DNA of 63,206 nt from NCBI GenBank assembly GCA_026710545.1, contig JAPOQU010000072.1, forward strand, positions 1 through 63,206, read 5' to 3'. Source of the DNA: Gammaproteobacteria bacterium (lineage in GTDB: Bacteria; Pseudomonadota; Gammaproteobacteria; Eutrophobiales; Eutrophobiaceae). The translations under genes were made by a program, and so were the position numbers. Each line of letters begins with the position of its first letter. The stretch's first letter is position 1. This document shows positions 6,287 to 59,223 of this stretch, one piece after another. The notes beneath the pieces were generated by a model, which searched no databases, was not told where the DNA came from, and was given only the letters and a program-made list of their open reading frames with translations.

Positions 6287-7477
6287 TTATCCATGAAGCT
6301 GCACCACGTCAGCCCTGCGCCCGGTCAAGTAGTCCGCCCATTGGTTCATCAAGGCGCGCCGACGCTCAAACAGATCGCTACGGAAATAAGCACCCTCAGT
6401 TCCCTGCACCACATGCGCCAGCGCGGCCTCCGCTATCTCTCTCGGCTTGCCCGTATCCGCACACCAGTCCCGGAAGCTGGAACGGAAGCCGTGTACTGTT
6501 GCCCGGTCAGCCAGACCCTTGTCCCTCAGGAGTTTATTCATCGTCATATTGCTCATCGGTTTACCGGGTCGCCAAACCGAGGGGAAAACTAGGCCCGATG
6601 TATCATCCAGTATCCGGGCCTGTTCCAGTACCTCAAGCGCCGGATCGGACAATGGCACGCGGTGCGCCCGGGTCATTTTCATGCGGTCGGCAGGGATAGT
6701 CCACGTCCTGGTTTCAACATCGATCTCATCCCACGTGGCGCCCAGGATCTCCCCGGTCCGGGCCGCGGTCAAAATAAGAAAACGCAACGCCAGTTTTGCA
6801 GGCAGCGACGCGCCTGACGCCGCTATGGTGTCCAGCGCCCCGGCAACGTCCTTATAAGGCAACGCCCGGAAGTGTTCCTTGATGGCCCGTTGTTTCGGCA
6901 ACGCCCCGTCAATCATCTCGCCTGCCGGGTTGTTTTCAATAAAACCATGCGCCTGCGCCCAGCGGAATACTGCCCGCATTTTCTGCCGCAACCGGCGCGC
7001 GGTTTCCGCCCGTTTGCTCCACAGGGGGGTCAGGATACGCAATACGTCTTCACGGCCTATCCTGTCTATCGGTTCGGACCCGATAACCGGGATGGCGTAT
7101 TTCTCCATGATCTGCATCCAGTTCTTTGCATGTTTGTCGTTGCGCCAGCGGGGTTTCAGCGCCGCATAGGTCTTGATGGCCGCGTCCCGGAATGTCGGCA
7201 TTTGTGCCTTGCGTTTCTCGGACAGCGGATCGCCGCCTTCCGCCACCAGCACCCGGTTAACGAGCGCTCGTTGACGTGCTTTCGATAAAGAGATCAGTTT
7301 GAAGCTGCCAAGGCCGATATCCCGGCGCTTGCCGTGTATGGTTATCCGTTGGACCCAGGACTTGGCCCCGGTTTTGGTGACAAAGAGGTACAGCGTTTCC
7401 CCGGCCCGGTAATGGCCTTTAGTTCGTTGTGTGTAAGTTGCTTCACGTTTTAGCTCCCGTGCTTGCTCCTTTCCCAC
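6287..7477 (-). CDS. Tyrosine-type site-specific integrase of a tRNA-targeted element
   Basis: About 396 aa from a GTG at 7475-7477. The open frame runs on to 7648, but its first residues (NPLVVGSSPTGPT) are only translated tRNA. The N-terminus is a DUF4102-like arm-binding domain (GETLYLFVTKTGAKSWVQR), followed by the core-binding domain and the catalytic domain. In the numbering from GTG the catalytic set is Arg about 240 (TAARTGEI), His-x-x-Arg about 329-332 (HGFRSSFRDW), His about 355 and Tyr about 364 (GAYFRSD), all present. It abuts the 3' end of tRNA-Ile2, the usual attachment position. The second att copy is not seen in the window. Repeated TTTCCCACGCG motifs (7470-7492) overlap the start. 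Confidence 0.9.
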   Translation of the reverse strand: MGKEQARELKREATYTQRTKGHYRAGETLYLFVTKTGAKSWVQRITIHGKRRDIGLGSFKLISLSKARQRALVNRVLVAEGGDPLSEKRKAQMPTFRDAAIKTYAALKPRWRNDKHAKNWMQIMEKYAIPVIGSEPIDRIGREDVLRILTPLWSKRAETARRLRQKMRAVFRWAQAHGFIENNPAGEMIDGALPKQRAIKEHFRALPYKDVAGALDTIAASGASLPAKLALRFLILTAARTGEILGATWDEIDVETRTWTIPADRMKMTRAHRVPLSDPALEVLEQARILDDTSGLVFPSVWRPGKPMSNMTMNKLLRDKGLADRATVHGFRSSFRDWCADTGKPREIAEAALAHVVQGTEGAYFRSDLFERRRALMNQWADYLTGRRADVVQLHG

Positions 7478-7605
7478 GCGGTTTCCCACGCGATATATCG
7501 GTATATGTGGGAATTGAAAGAAACTGTTAACACCTATTATAGACAAAAAACCTATATAAATCAATAGGTATAGAGAACAATACGGAAATTGTAAGACTGA
7601 CAAGA

Positions 7606-7931
7606 TGGTGGGCCCGGTAGGACTCGAACCTACGACCAATGGATTCACTTTATCCTTTTATTTCTAAAAGGAGCGGACTATCTCACTACCCTCAACCGAA
7701 TGTTAGGGTACGGGACGCTCCAGCCTGTTATTAAGAACACTTCAGTTCCCAGGTAGTCTCTGCACCTTCCGGGGGTGTACCCCCGGCTTGGCTCAGGGTT
7801 GCCATTCCTCCTGTCCTGGTGGGCAGGCGGGTTAAGGTTTCCCTGAATTCATCCCGTTCATTTCATATCTTTCGATATGAACGCACCATTTTTGATGAGT
7901 CCACTGCTCTAACCGACTGAGCTACAGGCCC
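7606..7931 (-). tRNA. tRNA-Ile2 (CAU), interrupted by a group I intron
   Basis: Exon 1 is 7895-7931 (37 nt) and exon 2 is 7606-7645 (40 nt), together a 77-nt tRNA with encoded CCA. The acceptor GGGCC...GGCCC, D-arm GCTCAG...TTAGAGC and T-arm GGTTCGAGTCC are normal. The anticodon loop is CTCATAA, split after CAT. The variable region TTGGTC matches tRNA-Ile2 rather than elongator Met. The C34 would be converted to lysidine by TilS so that it reads AUA. Its place downstream of rpoD is also seen in other gammaproteobacteria. An integrase gene follows directly at the 3' end. Elongator tRNA-Met is the less likely alternative. Confidence 0.9.
7646..7894 (-). other. Group I intron (IC3-like) in the tRNA anticodon loop
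   Basis: 249 nt, inserted after anticodon base 36. The 5' exon CAU pairs with GUG a few bases into the intron (P1 with a U.G at the splice site), and the last intron base is G. The conserved core is easily read on the minus strand: GGGAAACCTTAA, GGCAACCCTGAGCCAAGCC, GAAGGTGCAGAGACTA and GATAGTCC, the last two forming P7. The layout closely follows the known Azoarcus tRNA-Ile(CAU) intron, a small self-splicing ribozyme of about 205 nt. No homing endonuclease frame is present, so mobility would need outside help. Confidence 0.9.
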
Positions 7932-14669: not shown

Positions 14670-14731
14670 GGGGTCAGAGTAAATACTCTGACCCCACATA
14701 GTCTAAGAGTAGTATTTTTACTCTGACCCCA
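14670..14731. repeat. GGGGTCAGAGTA-family palindrome, composite copy
   Basis: A perfect hairpin with 12-bp arms and an AA loop (14670-14695), followed by an extra right half (14711-14731). It lies between the divergent genes plsY and folB, so it may overlap their promoters. Confidence 0.85.
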
Positions 14732-22960: not shown

Positions 22961-23030
22961 TGGGGTCAGAGTAAAGTACTCATAATAAGAACATCATAAC
23001 CTGTCTGACTGTATTTTTACTCTGACCCCA
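22961..23030. repeat. GGGGTCAGAGTA-family palindrome with divergent centre
   Basis: The left arm GGGGTCAGAGTAAAGTAC and the right arm GTATTTTTACTCTGACCCC enclose about 35 bases unrelated to the core of the long copies. The right arm contains the stop codon of the epimerase gene (TAA on the minus strand, 23017-23019). Confidence 0.85.
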
Positions 23031-23970
23031 AATATTGCGTCTTCAGGTATGCCGGCACGATACTCTCAACCGTCGCAGGTTCGATACCCAGCGTCTCAAG
23101 GTCGTTGCAGGGGCAAACGGCATCGACCTGCATCGACCGGTAGTTGTCCGTCGAAAATGGTTGTTCGATACCCAGTACAGGGAAAATAAAACCGGACAGG
23201 TCGAAGGCCAGTCCCTGCATCCTGGCGGCAAAATCGGGAAGCGGGATGACTAATCTGTTCCGTGCGGTACACCTGGCGGTGAATTCGACCAGCTCCTGCA
23301 GCGTATAGGTTCGCGGTCCGCACAGGTCGTAACGTTTACCGAAATGAGCAGGCCCGGTCAGCGTATCGGCCATCGCCCTGGCGACGTCTTCCACGAACAC
23401 CGGTGCGAAGCGCGCCCCGGCGCAGGCCAGCGGGAATACCCCGGGCATCAACCTGATCAATCCGGCAAAGCGGTTGAAGAAGCTGTCGTCCTGTCCGAAT
23501 ATCACGGACGGGCGGTAAGTGGTGACGTTAAGCTCTTCGGCGGCATGTACCCTGTCTTCCGCTGCGCCCTTGCTGCGCAGGTAATGGCTGGTTCCTCCCG
23601 TCGCGTCGGCGTTGATTGCGCTCATATGCAACAGGCGTTCGATCCGGTGTTCCCGGCAGGCGCGTATGACCTTGTCAGACAACTCGGTGTGGGCATGGTA
23701 AAACCCGGCCCCGCTTGTTCCCCGTCCATTCAGGATCCCCACGAGATTGACTACTGCATCGCAATCGGTCAGGTGAGCGGTCAATTGTGCCTGGTCATGG
23801 ATTTCGGTCTCGACCAGTTCCAGGTTGGGCAACAGGCTGAGTGCGCGCTGATTTGCCGCGCGCCTGCGCGTCAGTACCTTCAATGCATATCCGGCGTCGC
23901 TTAAGCGGCGCGCGAGCGAGCGGCCGACAAAACCGGTGCCGCCGAGAATGCCGATTTTACTGATGCTCAT
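23017..23970 (-). CDS. NAD(P)-binding epimerase, complex I NDUFA9-like
   Basis: 317 aa atypical short-chain dehydrogenase. It begins with the Rossmann motif SKIGILGGTGFVGRSLARRL and has DAVVNLVGIL and LLHMSAINAD. This subgroup is related to the NDUFA9 subunit of respiratory complex I and to sugar-nucleotide epimerases. The catalytic YxxxK of classical SDRs is not obvious (HYLRSKG is the nearest). The final residues, QYLGSE, and the stop come from the repeat downstream. Confidence 0.85.
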   Translation of the reverse strand: MSISKIGILGGTGFVGRSLARRLSDAGYALKVLTRRRAANQRALSLLPNLELVETEIHDQAQLTAHLTDCDAVVNLVGILNGRGTSGAGFYHAHTELSDKVIRACREHRIERLLHMSAINADATGGTSHYLRSKGAAEDRVHAAEELNVTTYRPSVIFGQDDSFFNRFAGLIRLMPGVFPLACAGARFAPVFVEDVARAMADTLTGPAHFGKRYDLCGPRTYTLQELVEFTARCTARNRLVIPLPDFAARMQGLAFDLSGFIFPVLGIEQPFSTDNYRSMQVDAVCPCNDLETLGIEPATVESIVPAYLKTQYLGSE

Positions 23971-24205: not shown

Positions 24206-24607
24206 ATGGAACTGACCCTTCCCTGGTACTTTTTTGACGCGAACGCACCGGATGAGATTAAACCCGGGCACAAGCCTGAGGGAGATGCCGTCGCGGAAAA
24301 GGAGAAGAGAATCCTGTGTCGCTTTTGCCAGGGCCCGGTTACGGACAACAGCAGGCAGACAACACCGCTGGGCCGGTTTATCCATTGCCGGACCAACGCT
24401 GGCGGGTTTACCTTCGAATTCGGCTGTTTTTCGGATGCGCCGGGGTGTATGACCACGGGCGATGCGACTACCGAACATACCTGGTTTCCCGGCCATAGCT
24501 GGAAACTGGCCCTCTGCCGCAACTGCGGCGAACACCTTGGCTGGTCATTCAGGGGCGATACGTCATTTTACGGTTTGATACTGGACAGGCTGGTAGAGGA
24601 AGAGTAG
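24206..24607 (+). CDS. Single-domain CULT (cereblon-like) protein
   Basis: 133 aa. It carries the complete signature of the CULT domain, the thalidomide-binding domain of eukaryotic cereblon. Two zinc CxxC pairs are C38-C41 and C104-C107. The aromatic cage is W93, W99 and W113 with F115, at the same spacings (6, 14, 2) as human W380, W386, W400 and F402. The hydrogen-bonding Asn is N64, 29 residues before W93, as N351 is before W380. The motifs HTWFPGHSWKLALC and GEHLGWSF are near-diagnostic. Bacterial stand-alone members, such as MsCI4 of Magnetospirillum, exist with unknown natural ligand. It is monocistronic. Confidence 0.88.
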   Translation: MELTLPWYFFDANAPDEIKPGHKPEGDAVAEKEKRILCRFCQGPVTDNSRQTTPLGRFIHCRTNAGGFTFEFGCFSDAPGCMTTGDATTEHTWFPGHSWKLALCRNCGEHLGWSFRGDTSFYGLILDRLVEEE

Positions 24608-24721
24608 ATCTGTGCGGTTCTCCTGGTTTCCACCCGGATAATTACGGGTATAATACCTCCCCTTTATTTCACAGCGAGGTTGGAACCATGGTTCGTGCCG
24701 TCCGGAACGGGGAAGCAGCAA

Positions 24722-25918
24722 TTGCCTGATAACAGTAATTCAGGCGCACTGGAAGGGGTGCGCGTACTCGAACTCGGCCAGCTTATTGCGGGCCCGTTCT
24801 GCGGCCAGGTGCTGGCGGACATGGGCGCCGAGGTGATCAAGATAGAGTTGCCCGGTCGCGGCGACCCGATGCGCGATTGGGGACAAGGGGAGCCCGTGTG
24901 GTGGCCTGTTGTCGCACGCAACAAGAAATGCATCACCCTGGACGTCAGGTCCGGGCAGGGCAAGGCCATCATCGGTGAACTGGTGGAGAAAGCGGATATC
25001 GTCCTGGAGAACTTCAGGCCGGGCACCATGGAGAAATGGGGACTGGGATATGCCGACCTGGCCAGGCTCAACCAGGGTATTATCATGGTGCGCGTCTCCG
25101 GCTACGGCCAATCTGGTCCTTACTCCTCGCGCGCGGGTTATGGGGGCATCGGCGAAGCCATGGGCGGCTTGCGGTACATCGTTGGCGATCCCTCTACGCC
25201 ACCCAGCCGGGTGGGCATCAGCATAGGCGATACCCTCGCGGCCATGTTCGCTGCCATCGGCGCCCTGTCGGCGTTACAGTTCCGGCAACGGACCGGGCAG
25301 GGTCAGGTCGTTGATTCGGCCATTTATGAAGCGGTGCTGGGGGTGATGGAATCCACGGTTCCGGAATACGACCAGCTCGGGACTATCAGGGAGCGCACCG
25401 GTTCGATCCTGGCCAAGGTTGCCCCTTCCAACGTCTATCCGACTTCGGATGACGACATGATCATCATGGGGGCCAACCAGGACACCGTTTTCGCGCGGCT
25501 GTGTGAAGCCATGCAGCAGCCGGAACTGGCAAAGGATGAAAGATTCAGCACCCACGTTGCCCGGGGAGAGAACCAGGCGCTACTGGACGATATGATTTCC
25601 GCCTGGTCAAAAGGCTTCACGGCCGACGACCTGCTGGCGCTCCTGGAACAGCATGCCGTACCGGCGGGGCGGATTTACCGGGCGCCGGACATGCTCAAGG
25701 ACGAGCATTTTATCGCCAGGGAGAGCATCGTTGAGGTGGAACACCCGAAATACGAGAACCTGAAGATGCAGAACGTATTCCCCAGGTTGTCGGCCACGCC
25801 GGGCAGCGTCAAGTGGACCGGACCGGCCCTCGGAGAGCATAACGGGGAAATCTACCGGGAGTTGCTCGGCTACAGCGACTCTGATTTGGAACGGTTGAAC
25901 AAGGACGGGATAATCTGA
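24722..25918 (+). CDS. CaiB/BaiF family CoA transferase
   Basis: About 398 aa. The start is set at a TTG (24722) preceded by GGGGAAG; a GTG at 24695 and a TTG at 24680 are alternatives. It begins GALEGVRVLELGQLIAGPF, then GAEVIKIELPGRGDPMRDWG, VLENFRPGTMEKWGL and YGQSGPYSSRAGYG, the standard class III CoA-transferase pattern. It moves CoA between carboxylic acids. The donor and acceptor are not evident from neighbours. Confidence 0.88.
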   Translation: MPDNSNSGALEGVRVLELGQLIAGPFCGQVLADMGAEVIKIELPGRGDPMRDWGQGEPVWWPVVARNKKCITLDVRSGQGKAIIGELVEKADIVLENFRPGTMEKWGLGYADLARLNQGIIMVRVSGYGQSGPYSSRAGYGGIGEAMGGLRYIVGDPSTPPSRVGISIGDTLAAMFAAIGALSALQFRQRTGQGQVVDSAIYEAVLGVMESTVPEYDQLGTIRERTGSILAKVAPSNVYPTSDDDMIIMGANQDTVFARLCEAMQQPELAKDERFSTHVARGENQALLDDMISAWSKGFTADDLLALLEQHAVPAGRIYRAPDMLKDEHFIARESIVEVEHPKYENLKMQNVFPRLSATPGSVKWTGPALGEHNGEIYRELLGYSDSDLERLNKDGII

Positions 25919-25943: not shown

Positions 25944-26064
25944 ATTTGGGGTCAGAGTAAGGGGTCAGAGTAAGGGGTCAGAGTAAAAATACACAACAAC
26001 GAAGCTGTGACGCTAACCGGGGTGGAAGTATTTTTACTCTGACCCCTTACTCTGACCCCAAATA
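25944..26064. repeat. Long GGGGTCAGAGTA-family element, copy with 3+2 arm units
   Basis: Three tandem GGGGTCAGAGTAA units on the left and two complementary units on the right enclose a core of about 35 bases (ACAACAACGAAGCTGTGACG... to GGGGTGGAAG). The same core is present at 29151-29271 in reverse orientation and at 52132-52269. This copy is between the convergent CoA-transferase and hemH genes. Confidence 0.9.
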
Positions 26065-28025: not shown

Positions 28026-29166
28026 ACCTGCGTTCACTGTCGGTATCGAAGAGGAATACCTGCTGGTGAACAGGGAAACGCGTGACCTGTGCAACGACAC
28101 ACCCGAAACCATGGTACAGGAATGCGCGGCGCTGTGTGGGGGGCAGGTCACTCCCGAATTTCTCCGCTCCCAGATCGAGGTGGGCACCAGGCCCTGCAAA
28201 ACCATTCCCGAGGCCCGTGAGGACCTCGCTTCCTTAAGGAGTGCAGTCATCGAGGTTGCAGGCCGTTACGGACTGGCGCCCATCGCCGCGTCCACCCACC
28301 CCTTCGCCAGTTGGCGTGACCAGCGGCACACGGAGAAGGAACGTTACGATATCCTCGAACACGACATGCAGGCTGCCGCAAGACGCATGCTGATCTGCGG
28401 CATGCACGTCCACGTCGGTATCGGGGACAACGAATTGCGCATCGACCTGTTGAATCAATTCAACTACTTCCTGCCCCACCTGCTGGCCCTGAGTTGCTCG
28501 TCTCCTTTCTGGGAAGGGGAAAACACGGGCCTGATGTCATACCGGTTAACGGTGTTTGACGCCTTGCAGCGCACCGGCATCCCCGAGCAGTTTTCGAGTT
28601 ACGCGGAGTATGAACGCCATATCAATATTCTGAAATCCGCCGGGGTAATTGATGATGCAAGCAAAGTCTGGTGGGACCTGCGGCCCAGTGCGCGCTATCC
28701 GACCCTGGAGGCGCGTATCATGGACGTATGCACATCCCTGGATGACGCGGCCTGTATTGCTGCATTGACGGTTTGTATCATGCGTATGCTCTACCGCCTG
28801 CGCAAGAACAACCAGCGCTGGCGGGCTTATGCCCAGATGCTGGTGACGGAAAACCGCTGGCGCGCCATGCGCTACGGTCCTGACGAGGGGTTGATCGACT
28901 TCGGCAAAAGCGAGATTGTCCCGTTCGATGTGTTACTGGAAGAATTGATCGAGCTTGTTGAAGAAGACGCCGATGTCCTGGACTGTACCGCTGAACTGGT
29001 GCATGCGCGCACCATCCTCACACGCGGCACCAGCGCACACCGGCAGCTTGTGGCGTACGAGCGGGCCCTCCGCTTGGGTATGGACAAGCAGAAAGCGCTG
29101 CATGCCGTGGTCGACATGCTGATCACTGAGACAGCCCCGGATACTGAAAATTTGGGGTCAGAGTAA
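28012..29166 (+). CDS. Carboxylate-amine ligase, GCS2/YbdK family
   Basis: 384 aa. PAFTVGIEEEYLLVNRETRD, then RSQIEVGTRP and MLICGMHVHVGI, are typical of the GCS2 glutamate-cysteine ligase family. It is homologous to E. coli YbdK, which has weak glutamate-cysteine ligase activity. It is paired with an N-formylglutamate amidohydrolase, a pairing seen in other proteobacteria, and may make an unknown gamma-glutamyl or amide compound. The C-terminal residues NLGSE and the stop are supplied by a repeat. Confidence 0.86.
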   Translation: MAIPEPAFTVGIEEEYLLVNRETRDLCNDTPETMVQECAALCGGQVTPEFLRSQIEVGTRPCKTIPEAREDLASLRSAVIEVAGRYGLAPIAASTHPFASWRDQRHTEKERYDILEHDMQAAARRMLICGMHVHVGIGDNELRIDLLNQFNYFLPHLLALSCSSPFWEGENTGLMSYRLTVFDALQRTGIPEQFSSYAEYERHINILKSAGVIDDASKVWWDLRPSARYPTLEARIMDVCTSLDDAACIAALTVCIMRMLYRLRKNNQRWRAYAQMLVTENRWRAMRYGPDEGLIDFGKSEIVPFDVLLEELIELVEEDADVLDCTAELVHARTILTRGTSAHRQLVAYERALRLGMDKQKALHAVVDMLITETAPDTENLGSE

Positions 29167-29271
29167 GGGGTCAGAGCAAAAATACTTCCACCCCGGTTAG
29201 CGTCACAGCTTCGTTGTTGTGTATTTTTACTCTGACCCCTTACTCTGACCCCTTACTCTGACCCCAAATAT
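29151..29271. repeat. Long GGGGTCAGAGTA-family element, inverted copy
   Basis: Two left units (the second changed to GAGCAA), the core in reverse orientation relative to 25944-26064, and three right units. It contains the stop codon of the GCS2 gene and ends seven bases before the stop of the permease gene on the other strand. Confidence 0.9.
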
Positions 29272-35009: not shown

Positions 35010-35033
35010 TTTTTACTCTGACCCCGAATTTCC
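35010..35033. repeat. Half site of the GGGGTCAGAGTA family
   Basis: A single right arm, AGTATTTTTACTCTGACCCC, lies between sat and the groES promoter, with no matching left arm within a short distance. It looks like a decayed copy. Confidence 0.6.
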
Positions 35034-52131: not shown

Positions 52132-52269
52132 ATATTTGGGGTCAGAGCAAGGGGTCAGAGCAAGGGGTCAGAGCAAAAATACACAACAACGAAGCTGTGA
52201 CGCTAACCGGGGTGGAAGTATTTTTGCTCTGACCCCTTGCTCTGACCCCTTGCTCTGACCCCAAATATC
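52132..52269. repeat. Long GGGGTCAGAG-family element with all units changed to GAGCAA
   Basis: Three left units GGGGTCAGAGCAA and three right units TTGCTCTGACCCC enclose the same core as at 25944-26064, in the same orientation. All six units carry the T-to-C change or its complement, so the stem stays fully paired. Confidence 0.92.
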
Positions 52270-59186: not shown

Positions 59187-59223
59187 TATTTGGGGTCAGA
59201 GTAAATACTCTGACCCCAAATAT
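59186..59223. repeat. Perfect minimal GGGGTCAGAGTA palindrome
   Basis: A 38-base hairpin with 18-bp arms (ATATTTGGGGTCAGAGTA) and an AA loop in the ilvC-pssA gap. It is the shortest clean copy of the family and may mark the basic unit. Confidence 0.93.

What the first reader, a model, noticed from the sequence alone, without database searches (positions are those of the whole stretch)
24206..24607. Bacterial single-domain CULT protein with intact thalidomide pocket
W93, W99, W113, F115 and N64 have the spacing of human cereblon W380, W386, W400, F402 and N351, and four zinc cysteines are in place. Only a limited number of bacterial stand-alone CULT proteins are characterised, and the natural ligand is unknown. 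Monocistronic context gives no partner.
Basis: partly seen in the sequence, partly recalled or inferred. Interest (0 to 1): 0.75.

Follow-up and report, generated by a model that had tools for sequence, protein, structure and literature searches.

The report
Bacterial relative of cereblon's thalidomide-binding domain
This gene makes a small bacterial protein that is, by sequence and predicted shape, the same domain that lets human cereblon hold the drug thalidomide; it is a genuine but ordinary new member of a family already described in bacteria, whose natural job is still unknown.

Summary
ORF 24206-24607 (+) encodes a 133-residue single-domain CULT protein. It matches MsCI4 of Magnetospirillum at E 5e-17 and cereblons at about 1e-10. 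Its AlphaFold2 model fits MsCI4-thalidomide crystals at Z 19.9 and 0.9 Å over 100 residues. The zinc cysteines, N64, F94, G112 and W93/W99/W113 are invariant in all 72 homologues I collected from 26 families.

"Intact pocket" needs two caveats. The cage is complete, but the near-invariant proline beside N64 (human P352) is alanine only here (P in 70 of 72), and human Y384 is H97.

"No partner" is true of this window, not of relatives. In 20 loci the gene sits -4 to +74 bp after a TauE/SafE-like gene, but the two genes dissociate freely across the order. Other families have rhodanese or BatD neighbours, so there is no universal partner.

CULT occurs in 30 of 53 genomes of this order and 29 of 369 sampled from its class. 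Most congeners lack it.

Most likely function (inferred): a cytosolic reader that binds cyclic-imide or uracil-like ligands, perhaps damaged protein C-termini. This is a new member of a known kind. Ligand binding is untested, and I found no paper giving the bacterial function.

The parts
24206..24607 (+). CULT-domain protein gene, 133 aa, no signal peptide or transmembrane segment evident by eye; folded domain residues about 34-133, N-terminal 1-31 low confidence
24317..24328 (+). first zinc CxxC (C38, C41)
   Evidence: invariant in 72 homologues
24395..24400 (+). N64-A65, equivalent of human N351-P352; Asn invariant, Pro replaced by Ala only here
24476..24502 (+). H91-T92-W93-F94-P95-G96-H97-S98-W99: first two cage tryptophans (human W380, W386), H378-equivalent His, Y384-equivalent His
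24515..24526 (+). second zinc CxxC (C104, C107)
   Evidence: invariant in 72 homologues
24542..24550 (+). W113-S114-F115: third cage tryptophan (human W400) and F402-equivalent
   Evidence: W invariant; F115 is F in 59 and Y in 13 of 72
23017..23970 (-). divergent neighbour: NAD-dependent epimerase/dehydratase; conserved flank of the locus, not evidently a partner
   Evidence: PF01370; gene-order comparison
24627..24654 (+). sigma-70-like promoter match (10 of 12) between the CULT gene and the CoA-transferase gene; suggests separate transcription
   Evidence: consensus match only
24680..25918 (+). CoA-transferase family III gene, 72 bp downstream on the same strand; conserved flank in the genus
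   Evidence: PF02515

Best explanation
The gene encodes a cytosolic, stand-alone CULT domain. A zinc-pinned beta-tent forms a three-tryptophan cage that takes up a glutarimide-, succinimide- or uracil-shaped ring. The fold, zinc site and cage are supported by sequence and model. By analogy with MsCI4, the cage probably closes and folds around the ligand. The most likely biological role is inferred: it recognises cyclic-imide ends of damaged proteins or peptides (C-terminal aspartimide or glutarimide), or a small imide or uracil-like metabolite, and sequesters or hands them on without any dedicated, co-encoded effector. It is an accessory gene, inherited largely vertically in its order and lost repeatedly. 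I put about 0.85 on binding of thalidomide-like imides and about 0.4 on cyclic-imide protein or peptide ends being the natural ligand.
For: Sequence match to MsCI4 and cereblon. Predicted fold within 0.9 Å over 100 residues of MsCI4-thalidomide (4v32, 4v2y), Z 19.9, and human cereblon at Z about 18 including the CRBN-GLUL-cN complex 9nr3. The ten invariant positions in 72 homologues from 26 families are the zinc ligands, the cage and N64/F94/G112, so selection acts on the ligand pocket. Purifying selection against the congener. MsCI4 binds thalidomide, uridine and deoxyuridine and folds on binding (PMC4287342, PMC4449219). Human CRBN reads C-terminal cyclic imides through this domain (PMC11974815). 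No constant partner gene across families, and CULT absent from otherwise syntenic congener loci.
Against: No binding data for this protein. A65 for proline and H97 for tyrosine might change the exit groove or affinity; the YW/AA double mutant of MsCI4 is binding-deficient (PMC4449219), though His is natural in 10 of 72 homologues. The damaged-protein role has no genomic support of its own: the isoaspartyl methyltransferase family is in 52 of 53 genomes of the order whether or not CULT is present. Nothing here shows what happens after binding.
Confidence: 0.6

Rival explanations
1. The protein is a sensor or carrier of a small uracil-like metabolite (uracil, uridine, deoxyuridine, dihydrouracil), not of protein ends.
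For: MsCI4 binds uridine with low micromolar affinity and was crystallised with deoxyuridine (PMC4449219; 4v31 among the best fold matches). The pocket is the same.
Against: No pyrimidine gene found among the recurrent neighbours in 72 loci. The authors of the MsCI4 work found no biological context for uridine (PMC4449219).
Confidence: 0.25
2. The protein works with the TauE/SafE-like (TSUP) membrane protein as a two-gene unit, for example as a ligand-binding adaptor for export.
For: TSUP lies immediately upstream, same strand, -4 to +74 bp, in 20 loci, in three families (f1, f12, f219).
Against: In the order both genes occur in 21 genomes, CULT alone in 9 (this genome included), TSUP alone in 13 and neither in 10, so neither depends on the other. 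Most other families have different neighbours.
Confidence: 0.07
3. The pocket in this particular lineage is decaying: A65 and H97 signal loss of ligand binding.
For: A65 is unique among 72 homologues where Pro is in 70; five of seven genomes of the genus lack the gene, with syntenic loci lacking it in three of them.
Against: All invariant zinc, cage and Asn residues remain; dN/dS against the congener is about 0.2-0.3; His at position 97 occurs in 10 of 72; Pro51 lines the outer channel rather than the imide cage (PMC8900816).
Confidence: 0.12
4. A Yippee/Mis18-, GFA- or MsrB-type protein of the same fold, with a nucleic-acid-binding or enzymatic role.
For: Weak Pfam matches to Yippee-Mis18 (E 0.0026) and GFA (E 0.03); shared beta-tent fold (PMC4287342).
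Against: Both scores lie well below the curated cut-offs (18.3 vs 26.6 and 14.8 vs 24.3 bits). CULT structures are matched far better, and the tri-Trp cage is invariant.
Confidence: 0.02

Closest known systems
MsCI4 (cereblon isoform 4, MGR_0879) of Magnetospirillum gryphiswaldense
   Same: single-domain bacterial CULT protein, zinc CxxC pairs, three-Trp cage, invariant Asn; model within 0.9 Å, about 37% identity
   Different: window has H91 (like human H378) where MsCI4 has F77, F115 (like human F402) where MsCI4 has Y101, A65 where MsCI4 has P51, H97 at the human Y384 position
Thalidomide-binding domain of human cereblon
   Same: fold, cage W380/W386/W400, F402, N351, H378 equivalents; Z about 18, 28% identity
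   Different: no LON domain, no DDB1-binding part, no ubiquitin system; P352 and Y384 replaced by Ala and His
Group I prokaryotic CULT proteins of Lupas et al. 2015 (PMC4287342)
   Same: protein consists entirely of the CULT domain; gammaproteobacterial members were already noted
   Different: this lineage was not examined there as far as the text read shows; short low-confidence N-terminal segment with a Y-x-F-[DK]-like motif in this order

Membership tests
CULT domain family (bacterial single-domain group) | two CxxC motifs for zinc | tested here: met
   C38/C41 and C104/C107, invariant in 72 homologues
CULT domain family (bacterial single-domain group) | three invariant cage tryptophans | tested here: met
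   W93, W99, W113
[quoted passage not shown]
   Asn present, Pro replaced by Ala; half met
CULT domain family (bacterial single-domain group) | beta-tent fold superposable on MsCI4 | tested here: met
   AlphaFold2 model, Z 19.9, 0.9 Å over 100 residues
CULT domain family (bacterial single-domain group) | protein consists only of the CULT domain | tested here: met
   133 aa, domain 34-133
CULT domain family (bacterial single-domain group) | binds thalidomide, uridine or cyclic imides | not testable with these tools
   needs purified protein
Cereblon (E3 substrate receptor) | LON domain and DDB1-binding region fused to CULT | tested here: not met
   single-domain ORF of 133 aa
Yippee/Mis18 (PF03226) | score above the curated cut-off | tested here: not met
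   18.3 bits against 26.6
Glutathione-dependent formaldehyde-activating enzyme (PF04828) | score above the curated cut-off | tested here: not met
   14.8 bits against 24.3

The most novel reading that the evidence does not exclude
Bacterial stand-alone CULT proteins are readers of C-terminal cyclic imides on damaged proteins in a ubiquitin-free quality-control pathway, so the cereblon degron would be older than ubiquitin ligases; this order, where the gene is widespread and lost several times, gives natural pairs of genomes for testing it.
Probability: 0.25. Interest if true: 0.75.

Novelty: new member of a known kind. Interest (0 to 1): 0.3.

Why it matters
The natural ligand of cereblon-type domains outside animals is open, and the bacterial proteins are the simplest form in which to find it. 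The survey shows absolute conservation confined to the zinc site and cage across 26 families, no obligate partner gene, and repeated absence among close relatives. Together these point to a self-sufficient ligand binder and supply with/without genome pairs for tests. The window protein also carries human-like H378 and F402 equivalents that MsCI4 lacks, which could make it a useful alternative crystallography model.

Tried and rejected
TSUP as obligate partner: rejected by free dissociation of the two genes in 53 genomes. Isoaspartyl methyltransferase co-occurrence: uninformative, family present in 52 of 53 genomes. An apparent subgroup of it seemed to co-vary with CULT but does not do so consistently within genera, by my reading of the table; not formally tested. 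CULT on phages, plasmids or viral contigs: no match, so no mobile-element role seen. Fusions: long open frames around some homologues looked in two loci like out-of-frame reads of the upstream TSUP gene, not fusions; the others were not examined one by one. Docking of the N-terminal segment on the pocket: stays below pLDDT 50 with the deeper alignment, no support. L002 from the genome scan is a spurious match. A first TSUP search with a 90-residue fragment gave nothing and was replaced by the profile search.

Full report
What is there. The + strand ORF 24206-24607 starts with ATG and encodes 133 residues. The residue claims check out: C38, C41, C104, C107, N64, W93, W99, W113 and F115 are present, with the same spacings as human N351, W380, W386, W400 and F402. 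phmmer against solved structures gives MsCI4 at E 5e-17 and cereblons at about 1e-10. Pfam gives only sub-threshold matches (Yippee-Mis18, GFA, At4g08330 beta-tent), and NCBIfam nothing, so routine annotation with those libraries would probably call it hypothetical.

Structure. AlphaFold2 on 25 homologues gives mean pLDDT 83.6, with most of the core above 90 and residues 1-30 low. Foldseek puts MsCI4 entries first. VIA-align gives Z 19.9, 0.9 Å over 100 residues to 4v32 (1.0 Å to 4v2y), both MsCI4 with thalidomide, and Z about 18 to human cereblon, including a complex named CRBN-DDB1 with GLUL-cN, 9nr3. A deeper alignment of 49 sequences gives the same secondary structure and leaves residues 1-31 below 50.

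Pocket. Across 72 homologues from 26 families only ten positions never vary: the four cysteines, N64, W93, F94, W99, G112 and W113. That is the zinc site plus the ligand cage and its immediate neighbours. Two positions depart from the canonical pocket. P51 of MsCI4 (P352 in human) lines the outer channel (PMC8900816) and is Pro in 70 of 72, Ser in one and Ala only in the window. Human Y384 is H97 here, a change seen in 10 of 72. Conversely H91 and F115 match human H378 and F402 where MsCI4 has Phe and Tyr. The closest relative, in a congener (L030, apparently the same contig as the named record L001, MAG Plut_88898), is 74% identical with dN/dS about 0.19 (NG86) or 0.30 (YN00) and has the usual proline.

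Distribution. CULT is in 30 of 53 genomes and 17 of 18 genera of the order, 29 of 369 genomes sampled from the class and 21 of 398 sampled from the phylum. No match was found on plasmids, phages or viral contigs. In the genus only two of seven genomes carry it. The flanks are conserved in three congeners that lack it: in G004 the epimerase and CoA-transferase genes are about 0.3 kb apart with nothing like CULT between them, and G005 and G003 have other, unidentified DNA there.

Context. In the window the gene is flanked by a divergent epimerase gene and, 72 bp downstream, a CoA-transferase gene preceded by a promoter-like site. In relatives the common order is cca - epimerase - slt70 - TauE/SafE - CULT - DUF1499 - YjbQ (UPF0047) - DUF427 - hemH. 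The TauE/SafE gene is directly upstream by -4 to +74 bp in 20 loci. This is not an obligate pair: both 21, CULT only 9, TauE/SafE only 13, neither 10 among 53 genomes (counted). Farther families show rhodanese (three families) or BatD-type genes immediately adjacent (the BatD name is by eye from the sequence). No neighbour is constant. Genes were called by a simple ORF picker of my own, so small neighbours may be missed or spurious.

How it most likely works. Shown or strongly supported: the fold, zinc site, cage and selection on the cage. Inferred from MsCI4 and cereblon: binding of a glutarimide-, succinimide- or uracil-like ring with folding on binding (PMC4287342, PMC4449219, PMC8900816). 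Speculative: the natural ligand. The cereblon precedent of C-terminal cyclic imides (PMC11974815) makes damaged protein or peptide ends the leading candidate, with uracil-like metabolites second. The isoaspartyl methyltransferase family, whose human member makes such ends, is present in 52 of 53 genomes and therefore neither supports nor opposes this.

Standing. It is a member of the bacterial single-domain CULT group defined in 2015 by every feature tested except the proline of the NP motif. It is not cereblon and not Yippee. It is a new member of a known kind. The paper searches made here found no report of the bacterial function; the library holds open-licence papers only.

Noticed in passing
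window 7607-7928, minus strand: Group I intron (Rfam RF00028, 83.4 bits, 7654-7904) interrupts what reads by eye as a tRNA gene (GGGCCTGTAGCTCAG...ACTCAT / ...GGTTCGAGTCCTACCGGGCCCACCA, probably tRNA-Ile CAU) next to rpoD; the tRNA finder reports no tRNA in the window. A known kind of intron insertion, from memory.
   Followed up: partly
window 6287-7648, minus strand: Long ORF whose sequence looks like a tyrosine integrase starts at the 3' end of that intron-bearing tRNA gene, suggesting an integrated element there; not checked with a profile.
   Followed up: no
window 14670-14730, 22962-23029, 25948-26059, 29154-29265, 35013-35025, 52138-52262, 59192-59217: Palindromic repeats built from GGGGTCAGAGTAA: 24 copies against 0.03 expected, often in arrays of two or three facing inverted arrays; two sets bracket the CULT region.
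   Followed up: partly
window 24206-24300 and homologues: The N-terminal segment of CULT proteins in this order carries a loosely conserved Y-x-F-[DK] motif about 27 residues before the first CxxC; AlphaFold2 does not place it.
   Followed up: partly
L032, L034, L035, L045, L046, L049 and others: A DUF427 gene, a fold relative of CULT according to PMC4287342, often lies two or three genes downstream of CULT in this order.
   Followed up: partly
L106, L109, L114, L120: A rhodanese-like gene directly follows CULT (-4 to +30 bp, same strand) in three families of the phylum outside this class.
   Followed up: partly
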